From positions 1-64,000 of IMG/VR virus record IMGVR_UViG_3300035698_017294: a stretch of DNA of 64,000 nucleotides. One strand, given 5' to 3'. The position numbers and the translations under genes were made by a program. Under the pieces are notes generated by a model, which was not told the DNA's origin, did not search any database, and saw nothing but the letters and a program-made list of their open reading frames with translations. The stretch comes from a virus. Shown piece after piece: positions 11,110-58,627 of the stretch. How positions within the stretch are numbered: position 1 is the stretch's first letter; each line of letters starts with the position of its first letter.

Positions 11110-13923
11110 ATGCTAAAACTTGTAGAATATAAAGCCGAAGATGATTTTGGTGTGCAAATAGAACTTATCGAGCCAGGTGGGCCGATGGTTAAAACTGCAG
11201 AAGCATCAGACGAACTTCAAGAGGCTATAGCGCTGATAAAGCCAAACGCAGCAAAGCTGTACATCTTGGTAAATGCTATGGGCGCTGGTGAGTATTACGG
11301 GTCTAATCGAAATGGTGACTACTTCCCTGAAAAGGTATTACAGCAGTATCACAAAACGTTTGAGACCCTGGCACGAGTATATAAGCACCATGTTAATAAA
11401 GATCCAATGCGGTCTTACGGTCGACCTGTATTTAGTCACTACAACAATAAGATGCATCGCGTCGAGCTGATCTTAGAGATAGACAAGGGAAAAGATGCCA
11501 AGATCGAGCAGCAGGTACGTGAAGGAACGATAAAAGTATCAATGGGTGCAAAAGTTCCGTTTGATATATGTCTTGATGTTAATACTTTAGTCAACACAAC
11601 TATTTTAAAGAATATTGAACCGGGGGATTTTGTATTTACCCATGAAGGTAGATCTAAGGAAGTAGTTGCTACATCAACGCGTATTGTAGATTCCTATATA
11701 GAAGTTTTACCTTTTGGTGATTACTTATCTCTAAACTCTACCGAAGAACATCCATTTCAAATTGCTAACTACAAGCAATTCAAGGAAGGCAAAATAACAA
11801 GGCTGAAGGCTTTAAAAACTGATTACCCGATTTTAGACTGGAAAGAGGCCAAAGACTTAAATATTGGTGATTATCTAGTATTTAGAAAAACAGCTAAACA
11901 TGTGTCTACCCTAGGTATTAATTTTGCTAGAATTTTGGGTTACTACTTAGCGGAAGGTTGGCTAATAAAGCAAAGATCCGGTAAGAAAAAAGATGGCCCA
12001 ATGAAAACAATGGGAGTATCTTTTTCTTTTAATATAAATGAACATGACTATATTGATGAATTAGCAGACCTTCTTTCAGAATATGGAACACCAAAAATAT
12101 ATAATGCCCCAGAAAAGCATGAGTGCCGTATAAGTGTTTATTCAAAAGACTTAGTCGACAAGTTATTAAAATATGGTGGTGAGTACCCAGGTACTAAATT
12201 TATTAATTCAGAACTTTATAAAGAATCAGAAGATTTTATTCTGGAACTTTTAGGGACTTTAATAAATGGCGACGGTAGCCAAGATCATTCTTCACAGCAA
12301 GGGGTAATAAGATATAGCACTATATCCGAGTATCTGGGAAGAGGTATTCGTCGACTATGTCTTGAGGCTGGTATAACAGCTAGTATAAATAGACGCGAAA
12401 CGAAAACTACGTATGGCGATTCTACGGTATATACTGTATATATTCCAGCTAGCGCTAGTAAGATTCTTTCAAGCTATTCAGTAAAAGTTAAATCTTATGA
12501 TAAAGGAACTTCTTCTAGGCTATTTAATTTTGATAATCATGTATTAATTCCTATAAAGAAGATATGTAATCACGACGATTACCTTGAAGTTAAAAATATT
12601 CAGGTAGAGGATGACGAATCCTATCAAGCGCAAGATTATGTTTCACATAATTGCTCAATATGTGGACACAAGGCGCGTCGCATGGTAGACTATTGCGAGC
12701 ATCTTAAACGTCCGAATATCAATAGGCTTAGACCTGATGGTCGTCGTGCGTATGCGATTAACACGCAGCCAAAGTTCTTCGATATATCCGTGGTGACAAT
12801 ACCAGCAGATCGTACTGCTTTTATGATGAGAAAGCTAGCGGAGTTCGAAGGCAACAGTGAGTTCGTAAAGCTGTCATCTGAGATGTATCACGAGGTATTA
12901 AAGAAAGCTGATGTTAAGGAAGCGGAAATAGAGAAGCAGATAGACGGCGAGACTATGTCTACTGCGGATACAGATCCTAAGGGGCTTATATATAATACTC
13001 AGGACGAGTTACCAAAAGCTGATCTTATAAATCTGGTAGACAAGCACGGTGCAGAAGCAATACTACGTGCACTTGCCGAAATGAATATCATGCCAAAGCC
13101 TGTGGACTTCCAGAGAATAATGCTACGCTCAGGACACATGGACGATCTAATGGATCACATGGATAGTCATAGGCGAGTTTTCCCGATCTTCTCAGATACG
13201 GAACCATTGCCGTTCAAATGTAATCATAGTGAATTGCCAGATGAGCTGCTACATGAAATGTCGACATACGTTCCCAGACGGTCATTATCAAAACCATTGA
13301 TAATTGTCCGCGTAATGCGCAAGTTTGCAGAGAATAAAAACATCATGTCGGATGATCCATATACGCAGTATTCAAAAAACGAATTGGCGCAGATGGAGAA
13401 CGGCTCACATGTTAAGACTCCAATTTACAAGAATCCAGCTATACCTCTAACCGCCCTCGGCGGCATGTATCTTGGATACTCAAGGTATTTTAAAAAGGCT
13501 GGATCCAGATCTGCTGTGGCGAACAAGTTTATCAAGAAGCCGTGGATGTACCCGCTATTGGCTTTTGGTATAGGAGCAGGAACTGTTGGTGCGCAGAAGG
13601 TTAAAGAGTTCAGCTTATCAAATATTAGCCAAATGCAGAAACAAGCAGGCGCAGCTTCTAACATAGCGGCAGGAATGCTAGTATCTTTACCAGCTACGTA
13701 TTACACTTCATATAACGTAGGTGCGAAGAAGAGATATGGTATACCAGTCGGAAACATAGAAAATACAGTAGCTAAGCATCCATTTATTACTGGGCTAGCG
13801 TCCAGCGTGGCTGCTGGAGCGGCTATTAAAAGACTAACAAAAGTTGCTTCGGCAGAATATTTTTCTACAATGTCAAACAAGGTTATAGACGAATTGTATG
13901 AAAAACTTGTACTTAGCACTTGA
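11110..13923 (+). CDS. Prohead protease-type protein with intein and long C-terminal extension
   Basis: The precursor is 937 residues. Residues 1-153 and 515-600 together resemble the head maturation protease of large myoviruses: AMGAGEYYGSNRNGDYFP, a conserved KVSMGAKVPFDI, a CSICGHKAR...YCEHL zinc-type motif and FFDISVVTIPADRTAF. Such enzymes cut scaffold and capsid proteins in the prohead. Residues 154-514 are an intein. Residues after about 600 form a long extension with K-x-A motifs and three hydrophobic Gly/Ala stretches near the end, unusual for a protease and perhaps an internal protein cleaved off. The stop overlaps the 13920 promoter. Confidence 0.8.
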   Translation: MLKLVEYKAEDDFGVQIELIEPGGPMVKTAEASDELQEAIALIKPNAAKLYILVNAMGAGEYYGSNRNGDYFPEKVLQQYHKTFETLARVYKHHVNKDPMRSYGRPVFSHYNNKMHRVELILEIDKGKDAKIEQQVREGTIKVSMGAKVPFDICLDVNTLVNTTILKNIEPGDFVFTHEGRSKEVVATSTRIVDSYIEVLPFGDYLSLNSTEEHPFQIANYKQFKEGKITRLKALKTDYPILDWKEAKDLNIGDYLVFRKTAKHVSTLGINFARILGYYLAEGWLIKQRSGKKKDGPMKTMGVSFSFNINEHDYIDELADLLSEYGTPKIYNAPEKHECRISVYSKDLVDKLLKYGGEYPGTKFINSELYKESEDFILELLGTLINGDGSQDHSSQQGVIRYSTISEYLGRGIRRLCLEAGITASINRRETKTTYGDSTVYTVYIPASASKILSSYSVKVKSYDKGTSSRLFNFDNHVLIPIKKICNHDDYLEVKNIQVEDDESYQAQDYVSHNCSICGHKARRMVDYCEHLKRPNINRLRPDGRRAYAINTQPKFFDISVVTIPADRTAFMMRKLAEFEGNSEFVKLSSEMYHEVLKKADVKEAEIEKQIDGETMSTADTDPKGLIYNTQDELPKADLINLVDKHGAEAILRALAEMNIMPKPVDFQRIMLRSGHMDDLMDHMDSHRRVFPIFSDTEPLPFKCNHSELPDELLHEMSTYVPRRSLSKPLIIVRVMRKFAENKNIMSDDPYTQYSKNELAQMENGSHVKTPIYKNPAIPLTALGGMYLGYSRYFKKAGSRSAVANKFIKKPWMYPLLAFGIGAGTVGAQKVKEFSLSNISQMQKQAGAASNIAAGMLVSLPATYYTSYNVGAKKRYGIPVGNIENTVAKHPFITGLASSVAAGAAIKRLTKVASAEYFSTMSNKVIDELYEKLVLST
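11569..12651 (+). mobile_element. Intein in prohead protease, with LAGLIDADG homing endonuclease
   Basis: A protein insert of 361 residues, Cys154 to Asn514 of the protease ORF. Block A is CLDVNTLVNTTILKNIEPGD and block B is STEEHPFQ. The two endonuclease helices are ILGYYLAEGW and LLGTLINGDGS. The C-terminal end is the standard VSHN followed by Cys. Splicing joins VPFDI to CSICGHK, restoring the zinc-type motif. It lacks close similarity by eye to the terminase intein outside the common blocks. Confidence 0.93.
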
Positions 13924-31007: not shown

Positions 31008-33363
31008 TTAATGCTGCCAACATTCCGCGACTTTTGCCTCGGCTTTCATTGGAACACGTGTTAAAAGTCTGTAGGCTGCCTGTATCATCTCATGTTCCAC
31101 CATGGATTTTACTTCAGCTACATCATCCTTGTGCACTTCTAGTAGTATCTCGTCGTGCACTACATTGATCAATTTGGCTTGATAGCCTTTCTCTTTTAGT
31201 CTTAGTCTGATGTTGGTCAATGCAATTTTGGTTATAGTTGCATTTCCACCTTGGAAGGGTAGATTTTTTGCTTGATTGCTCGCGTGGCTTGCTTCTCCGG
31301 AAACGGCCCAGTCTGTTTGCAGCATATAAAGCCGCCGACCGTCAAGGGGGCTGTAAGCATAACCATTTGTTTTTGCATGTTTTACAAGCTTGTCCAACAT
31401 TTCTTTAATCTTCGGAAAGGTGGCCCAGAATCTAGCTAATAGTTTTTTAGCAGCTTGCTTGCTGATATTCAACTTCTTTGCTAGCCTGAATGGGCCCATT
31501 CCGTAGGCAACCGGTTTCCCTATAGTTTCCCATAGGCCCGGACTATCCCTTTATGTACTTGCCCGTTACGGGGCTTCGTTTGCAATGATGCATTTGATGA
31601 CAACGCTTACATAAAACTTCCCAATTAGTTGGGGCGTTATTGTTCCTATCGTGATCTTTATGATGCACTAATAGATTATCTATAGATCCGCACTGGTTAC
31701 ATTTTTTACCATAATGCGCAAATGCTTTTTTCGAGAAACCACCAATTCCGTTTTTATAGGAATGGTTTTTCTCGCCCAGTTGGTTTCCTCCACTACCGGC
31801 TCCTGGTAATTTGAAATCACCTTTTTGGAGTTTGTGCCAGTAAGAATTACACCTTTGGGAGCAAAATTTCTTTTGCTGTCCTGACAGTTCATTGCTACAA
31901 CGAATACATACCCGTCGTCTAGTCTCTACACCTTCCGCTGTCACACGGCTTGGCTCGGGATTGCCACCACCATTACGTGCTGAGGTTTCCCCGAATTTGG
32001 CGAGTTTTGATTCGGCATTATTTTTCACCATACCGAAATTGATGCCTTTGGCTTGTTGTCTTAGATCTGCATATTCCTCTTTAATCTCATGGTTCACAGT
32101 TAATTCGGTGTATTCCATTTCGAATAGCAGGGAGGCAACATAGCTATGAATGTCATAGCCGTTCTCTAATGCGTAAATCCACGAATCCTCGCCAGATAGC
32201 TCGGCAATTATTCGTAGCTCACAGCCAGCGTAATCTGAGGCCATGATAAGCCAATCGCCGAACTGTGCGGTAAACGCAGCTCTGTATACATTGGCTCGTG
32301 GTATGTTTTGCAGGTTTGGATTTCGACTCGAAGAGCGGCCCGTATCTGCTTCAATTTGCTTAAAATCGGAATGTATTCTACCTGTATCGTCGCGAACATG
32401 TTCGTCGTACAAAACCATTCCGTAGGTAGTTATCAGCTTGGACGCTTTGCGCCAGGCCAGTAGGTTTGCTACAACTGGTCTATCGCTGTATATCTCAATT
32501 ACATCATTACCTGTTCCGGCAAGTGGTTTTCCTACAGCTGATTCTAAAATCGGCTTTACCTGCGCAGGTGATCCGTAGTTCAATAAATACGCAAACTCAT
32601 CACCGAAGTCCAGCGCGCCTTGCCCAGTATCGGGCAGGTGCGGCTTTACAGCGTGATCCAATCGTATCTTAGCTAGATCGCGCGCCTTAATGGCAGAATC
32701 TTCAAGCTTCTGCCAGCGCTCCTTATTTAGGAATATTCCATTTAATTCCATGTCACCCATAGCTGAAACTGTGCCACATTCTATGTTTAGCAGTTCTAGC
32801 ATTTTTTTGTCGTTCATGGATTTTGCGTTAGCCAGCTGTTCCCCTATTATTGGTAGCATAACTTCTGCATCATACGCGGAATATTCTAGTTGGGCTTTTG
32901 TAAAAGAATCGCCGTAAGTCATTTCTGCAAAAGAGTTCCGCTCCTCCTTATCCATTGGTTTATATCTTGGCAGGTAGCGTTCAACAAGATGGGCCAAACT
33001 AAACCCCTTCTTACGCTTACCCTTATTAAGCACTTGCTCAATTATGAACGTGTCCATAATATTAACAAGCTCAACTCCGAAGTTTGTTTTTATCATTTTA
33101 TAATCAAACTTCAGATTGTGTCCTACCCATTTAGTCTTTTGATTTCCTAAGAAATCTCCTAGACGGTCGTATTCAAGGGCACTTAGCTGCGCTACATCAA
33201 ATACGTACTGAAATTCATCTGTACCTAGCTGCACCAATAAAACTTGGCACGATAGCGGATCCAGTCCAGTTGTTTCAGTATCAAGACCTAACGCCGGGTA
33301 GTGCGAAAGCACGCCCAACGCCTTGTCTAAATCTTTGCCTGATGTAATTACTTTATAGCTCAT
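31008..33363 (-). CDS. Family A DNA polymerase, split by a group I intron
   Basis: The coding exons are complement 32032-33363 and 31008-31511; splicing gives 611 residues. The N-terminal 3'-5' exonuclease shows GLDTETTGLD (Asp28, Glu30), GHNLKFDY and YSAYDAEV. The polymerase domain shows motif A SDYAGCELR, motif B QAKGINFG joined to VAYGMGP across the intron, and motif C VHDEILLEV. There is no 5'-3' nuclease. It is the phage replicative polymerase. Exon 1 is an exact multiple of three, so without splicing the frame runs on into the intron HNH ORF. It overlaps the sigma gene by 11 bases. Confidence 0.92.
31512..32031 (-). mobile_element. Group I intron in the DNA polymerase gene
   Basis: A 520-base insert on the coding (-) strand. 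P1 is exact: exon end TTCGGT pairs with intron GCCGAA, with a U-G pair at the splice site (exon ends at 32032). The conserved core is present as AATCCCGAGCCAAGCC (P4/P5 region), GGTGTAGAGACTAGACG (P6/P7) and GGGATAGTCC (P7 3' strand). The 3' end is G at 31512 before GTTGCC. The intron lies at the motif B codons and carries an HNH ORF. Confidence 0.92.
31543..32031 (-). CDS. Intron-encoded HNH homing endonuclease
   Basis: An open frame of 162 codons inside the intron, continuous with exon 1. It has two zinc-binding pairs at the front (CIRCSNEL...FCSQRC). An HNH core follows: CNQCGSIDNLLVHHKDHDRN, then NWEVLCKRCHQMHH. Such nucleases cut intronless alleles and spread the intron. No ATG/Shine-Dalgarno pair is obvious for the core, so it may start at the ATG on the first intron base or be made as a polymerase fusion. 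Its TAG stop lies within the P7 3' strand. Confidence 0.85.
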   Translation of the reverse strand: MVKNNAESKLAKFGETSARNGGGNPEPSRVTAEGVETRRRVCIRCSNELSGQQKKFCSQRCNSYWHKLQKGDFKLPGAGSGGNQLGEKNHSYKNGIGGFSKKAFAHYGKKCNQCGSIDNLLVHHKDHDRNNNAPTNWEVLCKRCHQMHHCKRSPVTGKYIKG

Positions 33364-37751: not shown

Positions 37752-38363
37752 TTACTTAAAACTGTGTATGTACTTAATAGGATAGGCGTCTTCGCGAATC
37801 ATATGCAGGAATACCTGACTACCGATGGTAGCTATGATCTTATTGCCCTGCTGAATTATGTTCTGATCTAGCTCATACTTCATCTGGCAACTTGTGTCTT
37901 CGCGTCCGGTTTTTACCGTATCAAGTAAATCTTCAACTTTCGCCTTGGGATGAGATGTGAACAATGCTACGGTTGCACCTTCAGATCTCATATCAATGAA
38001 CTTAAACTTGGTTGTGTCCCACAGTTCAAACATATGCCTGCGGAAACTGGTCCCATCAACACAACTGATAACGAAATCGTATCCATCGTCCAAGTATTCT
38101 TGTAGGTCTGTTACCCGTCCGATTATTCCTTTATGAACCTGTAGGTCTTTTTTCCATCTTGTCTTAAGCGCCTTTACCTTGAATTCGCCAATATCGTCTT
38201 TGGTAAAATTCTGATACTTGATTACCTTTTCTGTAACCATATCATCATCTATCATCGTGAACAGGTAATTATTAGGTATCTGGTCGGCGATCATCAGTTC
38301 GTGCATTTCATACATGAAGCGGCTACCAATGCCGCCTACGCCAACTACTAAAACTTTTATCAT
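37752..38363 (-). CDS. ThiF/E1-like ubiquitin-activating-type enzyme (PRTRC-like)
   Basis: The product is 203 residues. Rossmann motif GVGGIGS is at 8-14, an Asp-rich switch FTMIDDDMV at 35-43, and DDIGEFKVKAL at 56-66 supplies the E1 Lys. ISCVDGTSFRR follows, and a C-terminal TSCQ with Cys159 fits a catalytic Cys. E1-like enzymes adenylate the C terminus of ubiquitin-like proteins. The spacing, including the long helix after GS and the SCQ...LDQN segment, resembles ThiF proteins of PRTRC cassettes. The Arg of the usual NxxR/NRQ motif is Phe here (YQNF). It overlaps the JAB gene by 4 bases. Confidence 0.75.
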   Translation of the reverse strand: MIKVLVVGVGGIGSRFMYEMHELMIADQIPNNYLFTMIDDDMVTEKVIKYQNFTKDDIGEFKVKALKTRWKKDLQVHKGIIGRVTDLQEYLDDGYDFVISCVDGTSFRRHMFELWDTTKFKFIDMRSEGATVALFTSHPKAKVEDLLDTVKTGREDTSCQMKYELDQNIIQQGNKIIATIGSQVFLHMIREDAYPIKYIHSFK

Positions 38364-38836
38364 TCGTGTATCTCCAACTTTACTGATGTATACCCATCAT
38401 TTTCATAATTCCACTTCCATCCGCGAAGTATTTTATCGCCACCGCCCCAGATTAGGTATGGCACGTTGTGTCCGTTACCTCTCCGGTATTCTCCAGAATC
38501 AATAACTGATGGTATGCCAACGCTATGGGGATGATTATGTACCGACACGGCTTGTGTTTTGCTTTTTAGATCCATGACAGATGTATTTTTCAATACATTC
38601 ATCATTTGCTGCGGATCCATGCGATAGTCAGCAACGTCTTGCTGATGTTCGGATAGTAGGTTTGTGACCCAATGGAAATTCTCTACATGAAGAATAACAT
38701 CCTGCTTTCCAAAATATACGCCGGTAAAAAATCCACAGAATTCACGCTTGTACGCCATATCTAATGTAAACAGATGCTTTAGTAGGTGGCGCGGTACATG
38801 AATTAATTCAACACTTAGTGTCTTATGCTTATTCAA
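38360..38836 (-). CDS. JAB/MPN+ metallopeptidase (deubiquitinase-type)
   Basis: The product is 158 residues. The JAMM motif is complete: Glu32 in REFCGFF, then HNH at 100-102, seven residues, Ser110 and Asp113 (H-x-H-x7-S-x2-D). These residues bind zinc and cleave isopeptide or C-terminal peptide bonds of ubiquitin-like proteins. It is coupled by ATGA to the E1-like gene, the pairing found in CBASS Cap2/Cap3, BIL and PRTRC systems. No ubiquitin-like substrate is recognised in the window. A terminator-like hairpin precedes it. Confidence 0.85.
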   Translation of the reverse strand: MNKHKTLSVELIHVPRHLLKHLFTLDMAYKREFCGFFTGVYFGKQDVILHVENFHWVTNLLSEHQQDVADYRMDPQQMMNVLKNTSVMDLKSKTQAVSVHNHPHSVGIPSVIDSGEYRRGNGHNVPYLIWGGGDKILRGWKWNYENDGYTSVKLEIHE

Positions 38837-38870
38837 AACTTAAACTCCTGTGACTTAAATTTATAAAGAA

Positions 38871-38891
38871 AGAGCGGGACTAGCCCGCTCT
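38871..38891 (-). terminator. Terminator-like hairpin before the JAB/E1 pair
   Basis: AGAGCGGG and CCCGCTCT pair around a 5-base loop. On the - strand TTTCTTTA follows. It could partly separate the upstream operon (238- and 731-residue proteins) from the JAB/E1 pair. Confidence 0.65.
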
Positions 38892-38904
38892 CATTGTTGC
38901 CAAA

Positions 38905-39621
38905 TTAAATACGCAGTGCGTTGCGGAGATCAGCGTCATTTTGCTGAATAGTTCCTTCTAGTTGTTTCTTGATTGCACCAACGATATGATTTCTAGCGTT
39001 AAGGATGTCGTAGCGATTTTCATTATCAACCGTTACTTTTACCTTTTTATTTGCAGGATTCAATCCGACTAGCATATGGGCGTGGGGCTTAATTGACCCA
39101 GCGAACTTAGCTTCCATACGGCGCTTATCTACGCACGCAGCTACCAAGCTCATCTTACCTGTATTTAGGTCAGACATCACTTCGTTATACTCATCCTGGG
39201 TTAGCTGTACAAGTCCTGCTTCAATATACTTATACAATTCATTACGCCAAGCGAAGATCTCTGGAAGGCGATCTTTGTTAAGCTGAACTTCAATAACGTC
39301 AGGCTCGGTTTTAAAAGTGATAGCCACACAGGTGTCACCAATGTAGGGGAAGTTCTCATCTACATTAAGCACAATTGCATAGTTCTCAGCTCCACCAACT
39401 AAGGCTGCCGACAAAACAATGTTCTCTTCACCAATCAGGTCATCAGTGGTAATAGTGTTAACGTCCTGCATGCGGCCGTCAACAAACAACCATTTATCTT
39501 CGTCTTTTGCGATCTCTTGAATCTTTTTAACAGCCTCATTTGGAATCAGGCTATAAGGTGTATCACCCTCAGTACTCATCACTGCGAAATCTATCTTTTG
39601 GATATTATCTTCCATCTTCAT
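38905..39621 (-). CDS. Unknown protein upstream of the JAB/E1 pair
   Basis: The product is 238 residues. The first 120 residues alternate strands and helices (IVLSAALVGGAENYAIVLNV, CVAITFKTEPDVIEVQL); the rest is helical, then basic and beta-rich (PANKKVKVTVDNENRYDIL). No Cys cluster and no terminal Gly-Gly. It is separated from the 731-residue gene by 12 bases. It may work with the JAB/E1 pair, but I recognise no E2 or ubiquitin-like fold. Confidence 0.6.
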   Translation of the reverse strand: MKMEDNIQKIDFAVMSTEGDTPYSLIPNEAVKKIQEIAKDEDKWLFVDGRMQDVNTITTDDLIGEENIVLSAALVGGAENYAIVLNVDENFPYIGDTCVAITFKTEPDVIEVQLNKDRLPEIFAWRNELYKYIEAGLVQLTQDEYNEVMSDLNTGKMSLVAACVDKRRMEAKFAGSIKPHAHMLVGLNPANKKVKVTVDNENRYDILNARNHIVGAIKKQLEGTIQQNDADLRNALRI

Positions 39622-39633
39622 TCCTTATGTATT

Positions 39634-41829
39634 CTAAAGTGTAGTTATTTTGTCTGCAACCATTGAATCGTTTGCTACGGCCAGCATTCTAGCAACCAGC
39701 ATATCTCTACCGGCGACTCTGTGGCCTTTACCAACGATGCAAAGGTAACTGAAATTCTCATCATAAACCTGATGATCATTTCCTACTTCAACGTAGTATG
39801 TTTGTTTTTTTCCCTCTACCTTGTAGGCCTGCATGGTGCCGTATTGATTACGTGTCGGTATGTCTACCAGCTCGGCATTGAGGGATTTTACAGTTTTTGC
39901 CAGCAGGACCTCCGACTTGCGGATCACTTCGTTATATTCCGCTAATCCGGCTTTAAGAAGGTTAGTAACTGCTGACTGCGGTATGGTGATCAGCGCTGGG
40001 TCACCAAACAATGCAAACATATCCTCTAGGGATCTGCATCTTGTTATTTTTGTTTTGAATTGCTTTATATTTCTAACGTGATGCAAAGTCTTATTTTCAT
40101 CATTACCCTTTAGATAATTTTTACCGCGCTTCCTGGTAAGATGAAATACATAGTGCACTGGAATGTTTAAGAAGTTGTCACGATAGGATGCACCGAGTCC
40201 CGTGGCTATGGTGTCATGCAGCTCCATTGAGCAATTGGTAATTGACTTTAGGAACGCATCATACTCTTCATCTGTGTTGTAACACAAAGCTGTAGCAATA
40301 ATTTGCGAAGCCTCTCCCAGGTTTACGCGTACACCATTTATAGTTAGCTTGCTCTGCCGTGTTCCAACAGCTGTCAGCTTAGTAGTACGTAACCCATTCA
40401 CGTTAACTGTTCCAATTTTTGCTTTGAATGACGCCCCTTCGGTACCGGCTCGTATCCCCTGCTCAAGATTTGCACAAAACGCTGTCACAATGTCATCGAA
40501 CTGTACGTTTGCTATACCGCTGTTCCATGTGTATTGTTCTTTATCTCGCAGATATACGCCAATAGCTGATTTGTAGCGGTCATCTAGTACATCATTTATC
40601 TTGTATTCTATGAGTTCAATTCGCTGCGTATCATAGGTTACAGTACCATTTTCGTAGGTTACACCATTGAATTTCAATATCTCGTCTTTTGCAAGTTTGG
40701 ATTGTAGGGCTTTTCGCAGACCTTCCTTGAGCTCTTTTTCGTCATCCGCTTTTCGCATAGCAACTAGCATAGGCAATGAAGTCTCATAGAATTTATCTAT
40801 ATCAAGAGCCAATGAATTTTTCTCACCTACTTCATCTTTGTATGACCGCCAAGCATCGACCCACTCAACCTCCTCCAAAATATTGTTAAGCACTTCGGCT
40901 GAAAACGTGCTACCGTCAATAAAACAAGTAGGAGCGGCCTCGCGGGGGTCTTTAAATAAAAGCATTCCTGCGTCACAATATGGGTATATTTCACTGTCGT
41001 CCGAAACGGTCATTGATTTAGCCAGCATATGTTCATTAACATCAGCAGCATTATCAACGTCTTCTGCATTTTGAAGGTATTGGTTTTCGGCAGACCGGTA
41101 TACTACTGTTCTAACACCATCTTTTTCAGCTACCATTGTGATTTTACATATGCACCACCTATAGGGCAGTTTGTGTATAAGAGATGTCATGTCCTTATGC
41201 TCTTGCAGAGTGGTAAACGCTTCGGTGATTTTATACCCATCTTCTCTGAATTGCTCTACTGCCGCTGGAGTGTCTAGGCGGATTTTTCTGTTCTTATTAG
41301 CCACCTCATAAAGGCTATCAAAATCTGCACAATGCATTTCGATATCTTCAGCTAGAAAATTGATTTTGGAAAAATAGCTCAGCTTTCCAAGCTGTTCTAG
41401 CTTAGGCAGCTCATCTGATCTCCACGAGCAGAGTTTATTACCAGATCCGTATCTGGACACTGATGGCATGGTGAATCTAATAAGATACTTAGATGCTATT
41501 GCACCGTGATCAGCCAGTTCGGATCGTGCGTGTGACTCTAGAATCACTCTAAGTAGTGGGAGTGGGTCGCGGGTGGTATTAAATGTGGCTTCGCACCTTA
41601 GCCACCGTGCTGGAGCGGCATGAATACTACGATCGAAATGTACTGAAAACGGAAAAAAATGACCTACGTTAGGTTTTAAATCCCCTTCAACCCATTCGTC
41701 TATTTCTTTTGATAATTCATCAACTTTAGTAAAGAATTCATCAACTGCGCCTTCTTCGCTGAAGTTGTATATGGCCGCCATGCCCTCTATTTGCTCTCTA
41801 GATCTTCCTTCATACTTAATTTTAGTCAT
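39634..41829 (-). CDS. Large unknown protein
   Basis: The product is 731 residues, the longest - strand gene. It has no membrane segments, no P-loop and no clear known motif. The central part has alternating beta segments with NG turns (KAKIGTVNVNGLRTTKLTAV, QSKLTINGVRVNLGEA). The C-terminal 100 residues include a Tyr-rich strand region (MQAYKVEGKKQTYYVEVGND). Its size and place next to the 238-residue protein suggest they act together. Function is unknown. Confidence 0.65.
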   Translation of the reverse strand: MTKIKYEGRSREQIEGMAAIYNFSEEGAVDEFFTKVDELSKEIDEWVEGDLKPNVGHFFPFSVHFDRSIHAAPARWLRCEATFNTTRDPLPLLRVILESHARSELADHGAIASKYLIRFTMPSVSRYGSGNKLCSWRSDELPKLEQLGKLSYFSKINFLAEDIEMHCADFDSLYEVANKNRKIRLDTPAAVEQFREDGYKITEAFTTLQEHKDMTSLIHKLPYRWCICKITMVAEKDGVRTVVYRSAENQYLQNAEDVDNAADVNEHMLAKSMTVSDDSEIYPYCDAGMLLFKDPREAAPTCFIDGSTFSAEVLNNILEEVEWVDAWRSYKDEVGEKNSLALDIDKFYETSLPMLVAMRKADDEKELKEGLRKALQSKLAKDEILKFNGVTYENGTVTYDTQRIELIEYKINDVLDDRYKSAIGVYLRDKEQYTWNSGIANVQFDDIVTAFCANLEQGIRAGTEGASFKAKIGTVNVNGLRTTKLTAVGTRQSKLTINGVRVNLGEASQIIATALCYNTDEEYDAFLKSITNCSMELHDTIATGLGASYRDNFLNIPVHYVFHLTRKRGKNYLKGNDENKTLHHVRNIKQFKTKITRCRSLEDMFALFGDPALITIPQSAVTNLLKAGLAEYNEVIRKSEVLLAKTVKSLNAELVDIPTRNQYGTMQAYKVEGKKQTYYVEVGNDHQVYDENFSYLCIVGKGHRVAGRDMLVARMLAVANDSMVADKITTL

Positions 41830-41848: not shown

Positions 41849-42238
41849 TTACTCTTCGTCTTTGAATTTCTCGTGCTCACAAGCTATGATAGCCTTGTAC
41901 CCATTTTCCTTGGGCCATGTGGACATTTCTTTTCCAATTAATTCCGCGGGCGTGACTACACCCAGATACTTCATTACTTGTACAAGCACGCTTCTCGCGT
42001 CTAGTTTGCCTGCTGGATCGGTTGATATCCACATCCCTTTGTGTGTAGGATCGCCTGCCCTATCGAGGATCCAAGCTTCATCAATTTGGTAATCGATTCC
42101 GTTTGGGTCACTGCATATAAGGACAGCTTTGGTAGCGACCTTATCAGGTGCCGTGTTAACTTCTCTCGATTCTACGTTCGTTATTTTCAAGTCTTTTCGT
42201 GAAGATCCTATCTTCATATTCAGGATGTTGGTTTCCAT
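41849..42238 (-). CDS. Small unknown protein
   Basis: The product is 129 residues with strands at the front (LKITNVESREV; KAVLICSDPNGIDYQIDEAW), a WISTDPAGKLDARSVLVQVM segment and a charged end. It looks like a small single-domain protein; no family is recognised. It follows dUTPase by 3 bases. Confidence 0.55.
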   Translation of the reverse strand: METNILNMKIGSSRKDLKITNVESREVNTAPDKVATKAVLICSDPNGIDYQIDEAWILDRAGDPTHKGMWISTDPAGKLDARSVLVQVMKYLGVVTPAELIGKEMSTWPKENGYKAIIACEHEKFKDEE

Positions 42239-56973: not shown

Positions 56974-57623
56974 TTATTAAAGGGCCTTTCGTATTTTTCA
57001 TGCCCGGGCATTCCTCCCCACTTTCTAATGTAATACGTTTGACTACGTTGAAAATAAACTTGCAGTTCAGGCGTTTTTTCTAATGTTTGGGAAACTAACT
57101 TAACTTCGGGTGATAACTCATCTACCAATAAGCACCATTTATCTGGAGCTCCAAGATTACATCGATACATAATATCATTGTCTTCATACCAAGCTGGCCA
57201 AATGATTTCGTCTGCATATTTTCCAGGTGCATATTCTAAGAATTCTGCTCCTTTTCGATTTAGCGCCCATGCAGCAAATCCGCTCGTAGCTCGCATAAAC
57301 CAGTACGGAGTGGTCTTTAGATAATTTTTAATTATCTCTATTTGGCCCTGCCCATATCTTATGTCATCATTTAGTATTAGTAAAAAGTCTATTTCTTTTT
57401 CTTTGAAGCTTCGGTTAATTGCACGATTCCAGCTTTTTGCGACCCCTAGATTTTTTGGTTGCGTGTCAATGAATACTTTTGGGTGATCTACGTGTATACT
57501 TTGATTTCCGTTATCCACTATATGTATATACTCAAAATGCTCAGACTGTGGTAATAGCGTATCCAAGGATTGTTCTAGTAAATCTTTCCTGTTCAGAGTA
57601 GGTATTGTAATTGCTAATTTCAC
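56970..57623 (-). CDS. Glycosyltransferase family 2-like
   Basis: The product is 217 residues. AITIPTLNRKDLLEQS opens it and LLILNDDIRYG holds the metal-binding Asp pair. The domain is short and overlaps the actin-like gene by 4 bases. It probably transfers one sugar in the same glycan. Confidence 0.75.
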   Translation of the reverse strand: MKLAITIPTLNRKDLLEQSLDTLLPQSEHFEYIHIVDNGNQSIHVDHPKVFIDTQPKNLGVAKSWNRAINRSFKEKEIDFLLILNDDIRYGQGQIEIIKNYLKTTPYWFMRATSGFAAWALNRKGAEFLEYAPGKYADEIIWPAWYEDNDIMYRCNLGAPDKWCLLVDELSPEVKLVSQTLEKTPELQVYFQRSQTYYIRKWGGMPGHEKYERPFNK

Positions 57624-58627
57624 GTATCTTCCTCTATAACAGCCTCAGATAGCGCTCCAGCTGCTACGGCGTGTAGCGGGTCCGCGACTAACTCGATACT
57701 TTTAATGTTAATTGGGAAGTCCAGTTCATCGTAAATTCTTTTGAACACGTCAATAAATCCGTCTGCCATCGAAGTTCCACCACCACATACAATCTTTACA
57801 GGTGTCTTAAAATGTGGCATACCTTCGCTTGTATTGAACAGGTGTGCTATATGAGTTAGGATATTTTTGATCGCATGGGTATAGTAGCTGCGTATAGCCA
57901 GTTGCTCTCTGCCAGCGTCCGATAAATTCTTAGTTAAAGAAAAGTCGGGGTCTTCCTTTATAGAAGTAATCTGTGGTATTGGGGTAGCTGTATCACGCGC
58001 TGCTTGTTGATCAATCCAGTCGCCTGATTTTGTAACACTAAAGTCTAGGGCAGCGACACCACGATACATCACAGTAACGTTAGCCATGCCGGCTCCCCAA
58101 GATATGGCTATCCCAGTGTAATCTTCGTCAGCCAAGGAACCATAGGCTAGGGCATGAGCTTCTTTAACTGTCTTTGGTGTATAGCCCAGGGATGCTAAAA
58201 TAGCGTCAATTACATCTGTGTGATAATTTGTATGCGCGTCAGAATCAATAGGTTTGGAGGGTGTTACATAGATACAGGTTTCGTCCTCAATCTCAGGATC
58301 GCCGAGAATGGCAGCTATTACAGCTTTAATAATTGGAAGAGCGTCTTTTTCAGACGGATTAAGTAACCCCAAAGCCATTGGACGCCGTAGCTCAATGTTG
58401 CCAAAAATATTAGCATAATCGTAAGCACCATTGCCAATAACGTATACATTGTCCCCAATGCGTACATAATTTATCCTCATTCGAACTAGTTCGTTTTTTC
58501 GTTGTTCCCACTTCCCCAAATAAACGAAAGCATTTCGTTCTGATGAAAACGTAGTTGTGTTCTTTTTACCTTTGGTTCGTCTAGCACCGACTATATTGCC
58601 GGTGCCAACATCAATTCCTACTGGCAT
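57620..58627 (-). CDS. Actin-like ATPase (ParM/MreB-related)
   Basis: The product is 335 residues. It has the phosphate-1 motif VGIDVGTGNIVGA, phosphate-2 region IAISWGAGMANVTV and adenosine motif IVCGGGTSMADGF of the actin fold. Bacterial relatives form dynamic filaments that move plasmids or position cell structures. In phage it could place DNA or the replication site. PRTRC systems also include an actin-like protein (protein D), a possible link to the E1/JAB pair. It is ATGA-coupled to a GT gene. Confidence 0.85.
   Translation of the reverse strand: MPVGIDVGTGNIVGARRTKGKKNTTTFSSERNAFVYLGKWEQRKNELVRMRINYVRIGDNVYVIGNGAYDYANIFGNIELRRPMALGLLNPSEKDALPIIKAVIAAILGDPEIEDETCIYVTPSKPIDSDAHTNYHTDVIDAILASLGYTPKTVKEAHALAYGSLADEDYTGIAISWGAGMANVTVMYRGVAALDFSVTKSGDWIDQQAARDTATPIPQITSIKEDPDFSLTKNLSDAGREQLAIRSYYTHAIKNILTHIAHLFNTSEGMPHFKTPVKIVCGGGTSMADGFIDVFKRIYDELDFPINIKSIELVADPLHAVAAGALSEAVIEEDT

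What the first reader, a model, noticed from the sequence alone, without database searches (positions are those of the whole stretch)
37752..38836. Phage-encoded E1-like and JAB peptidase pair, a possible ubiquitin-like system
An E1-type adenylating enzyme with a candidate catalytic Cys159 and a JAMM-complete peptidase are coupled by ATGA. The same pair forms the core of type II CBASS (Cap2/Cap3), BIL and PRTRC cassettes. The E1 sequence layout resembles PRTRC ThiF proteins, and an actin-like protein, also a PRTRC component, lies 19 kb away. No ubiquitin-like protein or E2 is recognised; the adjacent 238- and 731-residue proteins are unknown and are the best candidates for partners. Two readings are possible: a phage conjugation system acting on host or virion proteins, or a decoy/antagonist of host Cap2/Cap3-type defence.
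Basis: partly seen in the sequence, partly recalled or inferred. Interest (0 to 1): 0.85.

Follow-up and report, generated by a model that had tools for sequence, protein, structure and literature searches.

The report
Phage-encoded ubiquitin-like tagging cassette
This phage carries next to one another a small ubiquitin-like protein ending in two glycines, the enzyme that would activate it and the protease that would release it, so a virus of bacteria may run its own ubiquitin-style protein-tagging system, never tested so far as the papers searched here show.

Summary
In detail: an E1-type adenylating enzyme (37752-38363, -) and a JAMM peptidase (38360-38836, -) overlap by ATGA, and their catalytic residues are conserved in relatives. 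Twelve related phage records carry the same E1 (37-65% identity). In seven of the eight relatives read, the homologue of the first 77 residues of the neighbouring 238-residue protein is a stand-alone 69-88-residue protein ending in Gly-Gly (or GGN, GGNAN). In the window and its nearest relative it is fused, straight after GG, to a 160-residue tail, a natural JAMM substrate. E1, modifier and 731-residue protein co-occur in 13 of 13 records, JAMM in 12. A terminator-like hairpin follows the modifier gene in five loci, which would make more modifier than enzymes. The E1 clade is sister to PRTRC ThiF (99/98), but PRTRC proteins A, B, C and F are not matched, and no E2 is recognised. Best reading: a phage ubiquitin-like activation and deconjugation system, more likely conjugating proteins than carrying sulfur. 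Unproven: the beta-grasp fold (fold search insignificant), the transfer step, the targets. Sister phages carry a PRTRC-type cassette instead, some with tandem modifiers. New variant of a known kind.

The parts
39391..39621 (-). Ubiquitin-like modifier domain, residues 1-77 of the 238-residue ORF, ending ..SAALVGG
   Evidence: Stand-alone 69-88-residue protein ending in GG (or GGN, GGNAN) in L140, L142-L147; G76 and G77 invariant; fold not proven
38905..39390 (-). C-terminal extension of about 160 residues right after GG, then stop; precursor tail
   Evidence: Shared with L139 only (48% identity over the whole protein); absent from the other seven loci
38865..38892 (-). Terminator-like hairpin with T-rich tail between the modifier gene and JAMM-E1
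   Evidence: -17.5 kcal/mol for the gap, 6 of 200 shuffles as low; hairpins at the same place in L139, L143, L145, L147
38360..38836 (-). JAMM/JAB peptidase, 158 residues, TTG start with AGGAG upstream
   Evidence: Prok-JAB; E32, H100, H102, S110, D113 invariant; profile hits JAMM structures 2e-11
37752..38363 (-). E1-like adenylating enzyme, 203 residues, candidate catalytic Cys159
   Evidence: ThiF; PRTRC_ThiF-like; G8, G10, D39, Q51, K62, D103, C159 invariant; tree
39634..41829 (-). 731-residue protein of unknown fold, obligate neighbour; C516, C533, H538, C697 invariant; candidate transfer or target-recognition factor
   Evidence: Present and adjacent in 13 of 13 records; alignment A9; no family or structure hit
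41849..42238 (-). 129-residue protein, usual upstream neighbour, unknown
   Evidence: Homologue at the same place in L139, L140, L142, L143, L145, L147

Best explanation
The cassette is a phage-encoded ubiquitin-like system. The first 77 residues of the 238-residue protein are a modifier that is made as a precursor; the JAMM peptidase cuts after Gly77 to free the diglycine end (inferred). The E1 adenylates that end with ATP and takes it as a thioester on Cys159 (inferred from conserved residues). The modifier is then joined to phage or host proteins during early or middle infection, directly from the E1 or through the 731-residue protein, which has invariant cysteines (speculative); JAMM also removes it again (inferred, since JAMM is kept in relatives whose modifier needs no trimming). 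The hairpin behind the modifier gene would keep the enzymes scarcer than the modifier (inferred). Shown here: gene content, order, co-occurrence, conservation of catalytic residues and of the terminal GG. Not shown: any activity, the fold, or a target.
For: E1 and JAMM with invariant catalytic residues. Modifier free and ending in GG, GGN or GGNAN in seven of eight relatives read, fused after GG in the window and L139. Co-occurrence over 13 records: E1 13, modifier 13, 731-like 13, JAMM 12. JAMM present where the modifier already ends in GG (L140, L142, L144, L147). Terminator-like hairpin behind the modifier gene in five loci. E1 groups with PRTRC-type E1s at 99/98 and not with ThiF/MoeB. No rhodanese or CysM-like (PALP) gene in five records searched. 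Neighbours are dUTPase, sigma factor and polymerase A.
Against: The ubiquitin fold is not proven: model of residues 1-77 has pLDDT 65 with a ubiquitin-like order of elements, but Foldseek finds nothing significant, and profile comparison with ubiquitin gives E 0.024, reached by 6 of 150 shuffles. No E2 is recognised, and the E2_D search also missed the E2-like genes of sister phages, so it is weak evidence either way. The E1 clade has Tyr in place of the Arg of the NxxRQ ATP motif, and the window also has Val47 for Asn. G026 lacks JAMM. Sulfur from host enzymes cannot be excluded.
Confidence: 0.68

Rival explanations
1. A sulfur-carrier system: the E1 adenylates the diglycine end so that it becomes a thiocarboxylate for tRNA or small-molecule thiolation, and JAMM releases product or carrier, as in the mycobacterial CysO, MoeZ and Mec+ set (recalled, not tested).
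For: E1, diglycine carrier and JAMM without a recognisable E2 is the minimal sulfur-carrier set; weaker matches of the E1s to ThiF and MoeB families.
Against: E1 lies outside the ThiF/MoeB branch; no rhodanese or PALP gene in five records; an obligate 731-residue partner of no metabolic family.
Confidence: 0.18
2. A decoy or antagonist of host Cap2/Cap3-type or BIL defence: the phage proteins sequester or undo host conjugation.
For: Type II CBASS and BIL use the same enzyme types, and the JAMM alone could strip host conjugates; weak PADLOC E1-E2 matches.
Against: The cassette has its own modifier, co-inherited in 13 of 13 records, with E1 catalytic residues kept; an antagonist would not need them. 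A dual role is possible.
Confidence: 0.08
3. Virion maturation: the modifier or its tail is processed by JAMM during assembly, like the proposal for lambda TAPI and TAPK.
For: Iyer 2006 (PMC1779556) proposes JAB cleavage at the Gly of the phage tail Ub-like TAPI; in Salmonella phage Arash products of the PRTRC-type cassette were listed in the particle proteome (PMC10585845).
Against: Cassette lies among replication genes, not tail genes; lambda TAPI has no E1; the Arash particle list of 116 proteins also holds polymerases and other enzymes.
Confidence: 0.06

Closest known systems
PRTRC plasmid cassette (Iyer 2006 class 6d-like: Ub-like, JAB, E1, E2-like, helical protein)
   Same: E1 is the sister clade of PRTRC ThiF; JAB directly before E1; Ub-like protein in the operon; mobile element
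   Different: JAMM is short and canonical, not PRTRC_A; modifier ends GG, not GTKG; no PRTRC_B E2-like, C or F matched; gene order differs (modifier next to JAMM)
PRTRC-type cassettes in sister phages (Salmonella Arash, Vibrio D69, IMG/VR G012, G014, G019) and in KLEB27-3, ME3
   Same: Phage-borne JAB and E1, with Ubl in D69, G012, G014, G019; Arash, D69 and the IMG/VR records share the lineage-marker head protein with the window
   Different: Those read carry an E2-like protein with a (L/M)C(Y/T/V)G motif and Ubls ending GTKG, some tandem
BilABCD (type II BIL)
   Same: Ubl precursor, JAMM that trims it, E1
   Different: BilA has two Ub domains, BilB is a CEHH E2, BilD has two adenylation domains (PMC11354881); here E1 is one 203-residue domain and no CEHH E2 is seen
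Type II CBASS Cap2/Cap3
   Same: E1 and JAMM
   Different: Cap2 is an E2-E1 fusion acting on a CD-NTase with no separate modifier (own knowledge); here E1 is free and a modifier is encoded
crAss-like, Flavobacterium and other phage E1-JAB operons
   Same: E1, JAB and a protein with a possible N-terminal Ub-like domain before SG or GG
   Different: E1s fall in another clade nearer ThiF/MoeB

Membership tests
Ubiquitin-like modifier | Small protein with exposed C-terminal diglycine | tested here: met
   69-88 residues, ending GG or with 1-3 residues beyond, in seven loci; G76 G77 invariant
Ubiquitin-like modifier | Beta-grasp fold | tested here: inconclusive
   pLDDT 65, right order of elements; no significant structural or profile match
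E1 superfamily | Nucleotide-binding glycines, Asp, Lys, Asp and a conserved Cys | tested here: met
   G8, G10, D39, K62, D103, C159 invariant in nine; Arg of NxxRQ is Tyr
JAMM peptidase | E, HxH, S, D metal site | tested here: met
   E32, H100, H102, S110, D113 invariant in eight
PRTRC system | ThiF protein above TIGR03736 cut-off | tested here: not met
   49.7 bits against 144.75; sister clade
PRTRC system | PRTRC A, B, C, F proteins | tested here: not met
   No profile match to window proteins or to family profiles for B and C
Type II CBASS | E2-E1 fused Cap2 | tested here: not met
   Free-standing 203-residue E1; PADLOC E1-E2 models match only in the E1 part
Type II CBASS | CD-NTase gene beside it | not tested
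   No dedicated search; none named among the proteins scanned
BIL | CEHH E2 (BilB) and two-domain E1 (BilD) | tested here: not met
   Single-domain E1; no Pfam E2 or CEHH-type hit among scanned neighbours
Sulfur-carrier ThiS/MoaD system | E1 of the ThiF/MoeB branch with sulfur donors | tested here: not met
   Other branch; no rhodanese or PALP; host donors not testable
Protein conjugation system | E2 or other transfer enzyme; covalent conjugates | not testable with these tools
   No E2 found; chemistry needs the bench

The most novel reading that the evidence does not exclude
A self-contained viral ubiquitin-like conjugation system of a new type, in which a single-domain E1 and a new transfer factor (the 731-residue family) replace the E2, used by phages to tag host or phage proteins during replication.
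Probability: 0.35. Interest if true: 0.92.

Novelty: new variant of a known kind. Interest (0 to 1): 0.74.

Why it matters
Bacterial ubiquitin-like conjugation is known mainly as host defence (CBASS, BIL). A phage lineage in which some members carry a diglycine modifier with its own E1 and JAMM while others carry a PRTRC-type set would put such chemistry on the viral side as a conserved early or middle function. It gives a small, testable set (77-residue modifier, 203-residue E1, 158-residue JAMM), a possible E2-less route, and culturable sister phages (Arash, Vibrio D69) for work on the PRTRC-type version, whose role is unknown.

Tried and rejected
Single-protein scans of IMG/VR for the E1, 238-, 731- and 158-residue proteins found no relatives, and protein searches of isolate phages found none. 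GP88 relatives did not carry the cassette. Homology of the 238-, 731- and 129-residue proteins to PRTRC B, C or F was tested and rejected. The polyubiquitin hit of the 238-residue protein (E 0.012) was discounted: it sums weak repeats, at 2.3 bits each in the shorter query; a shuffled pairwise test gave p 0.0045, post hoc. The single-sequence model of the full 238 residues (pLDDT 36) was not used. Search for another GG- or GTKG-ended ORF in the record gave no better candidate. Pfam ubiquitin in the record: none. Jumbo-phage and crAss papers do not mention this system in the passages searched.

Full report
Observation. The E1 is a ThiF-family protein whose best curated match is PRTRC_ThiF at 2.9e-13, far under the cut-off. 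The peptidase is a Prok-JAB protein. The record is a 106,197-base virus contig; polymerase A, a sigma factor, dUTPase and GP88 lie nearby.

First comparisons. In isolate phages no relative of either protein or of the 238-residue neighbour was found. In plasmids the nearest E1s are PRTRC ThiF proteins, and their cassettes run E-C-F-B-A-ThiF. Cys159 aligns with the conserved Cys of PRTRC ThiF. But PRTRC A, B, C and F profiles do not match the window proteins.

Finding the family. The 937-residue head protein at 11110-13923 (probably a portal, with a LAGLIDADG insert) is related to proteins of Salmonella phage Arash and Vibrio phage D69. Its conserved motifs pulled 80 IMG/VR contigs of this lineage. 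In 46 of these records a search with the window E1 found 12 close relatives (37-65% identity, about 1e-32 or better) and a second, weaker group. Some of the 12 are near-duplicates by their scores (G003, G004, G038; G008, G023; G024, G025), so about eight or nine independent lines stand behind the counts.

The modifier. In eight loci read in full the order is 129-like, 731-like, modifier, JAMM, E1; the 129-like match is missing from L144 and L146, and JAMM from L146. In L140, L142, L144, L146 and L147 the homologue of the first 77 residues of the 238-residue protein is a free protein whose last two residues are GG; in L143 one residue and in L145 three residues follow. Only in the window and in L139 does it continue into a tail of about 160 residues, directly after GG. 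Gly76 and Gly77 are invariant. This is the pattern of a ubiquitin-like modifier and its precursor. A model of the 77 residues from one sequence has pLDDT 65 and the ubiquitin order of helix and strands, but the fold search was not significant, and comparison of the family profile with ubiquitin-like proteins gave E 0.024, reached by 6 of 150 column shuffles. The fold is thus likely but not shown.

Co-inheritance. Over the records searched, the modifier and the 731-like protein occur in exactly the 13 records (window included) with the close E1, and JAMM in 12 of them. JAMM is missing in G026, whose modifier ends in GG. JAMM is also kept in L140, L142, L144 and L147, whose modifier needs no trimming, which speaks for deconjugation as well as maturation.

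Residues and regulation. JAMM E32, H100, H102, S110 and D113, and E1 G8, G10, D39, K62, D103 and C159, are invariant. The E1 clade has Tyr at the Arg of the NxxRQ motif, and the window has Val for the Asn; some other phage and plasmid E1s also lack that Arg. A hairpin with a T-rich tail lies behind the modifier gene in the window, and hairpins lie at the same place in four relatives. If they terminate in part, the modifier would be made in excess of its enzymes; this is inference.

Place in the E1 tree. The window clade of nine is supported at 98/96, is sister to PRTRC and PRTRC-like phage E1s, and the joint group stands at 99/98 apart from ThiF, MoeB and crAss-type phage E1s.

Mechanism. Most likely JAMM frees Gly77, the E1 adenylates it and forms a thioester at Cys159, and the modifier is attached to proteins with or without the 731-residue protein, whose C516, C533, H538 and C697 are invariant. 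The search for Pfam E2 families found none, but the same E2_D search missed the E2-like proteins seen by eye in sister phages, so an unrecognised E2 in the 731-residue protein remains open. A sulfur-carrier role is the main rival; no rhodanese or PALP gene was found in five records.

Sister system. In the second group, Arash, D69 and three IMG/VR records read here carry a PRTRC-type cassette: Ub-like proteins ending GTKG (one copy in G014 and G019, two in G012, three in D69), an E2-like protein, a PRTRC_A-like JAB and an E1. For Arash no Ub-like gene was read. One phage lineage thus uses two versions of the same kind of machinery.

Literature. The class of prokaryotic E1, JAB and Ub-like operons, and JAB cleavage of a phage tail Ub-like protein, were proposed by Iyer 2006 (PMC1779556). 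BilABCD is described in PMC11354881. No paper found here describes this phage cassette; the library lacks most subscription journals.

Noticed in passing
L029:2397-3188 (Vibrio phage D69); L149:6794-7174 (G012): Tandem Ub-like proteins, three and two copies, each ending GTKG: a phage polyubiquitin-like precursor in a PRTRC-type cassette.
   Followed up: partly
L015 (crAss001 gp76-79), L016 (FpV4), L019 (Dulem virus 41): Conserved E1 and JAB genes with a protein whose N-terminal part looks Ub-like and stops at SG or GG before an extension; crAss gp78 has a YMHSHV..CTG motif that could be E2-like.
   Followed up: partly
L010:1395-4796: Another phage operon: 89-residue Ub-like protein ending GGGA, JAMM protein, two unknowns, E1, then primase, helicase and polymerase A genes.
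   Followed up: partly
L014:2805-6684 (Xanthomonas phage PhiXhv-15): 141-residue protein with a Ub-like C-terminal part ending GG, an 892-residue protein with an E2-like HGSLCLG motif, and an E1.
   Followed up: no
57620-58627: Volactin-family actin (PF25216, 1.1e-72), a family named for a haloarchaeal actin, in a phage with a sigma factor.
   Followed up: no
31008-33363: Polymerase A gene split: N-terminal part running into an HNH-like sequence, then a separate C-terminal part; looks like an intron or homing-endonuclease insertion.
   Followed up: no
11110-13923: Head protein with a LAGLIDADG insert (intein-like) in a conserved region; its NAMGAGEYYGSNRNGDYFPE motif marks this phage lineage.
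   Followed up: partly
L027:4224-8144: Ribonucleotide reductase with an intein-like insert holding an HNH-type sequence, outside the window in the same record.
   Followed up: no
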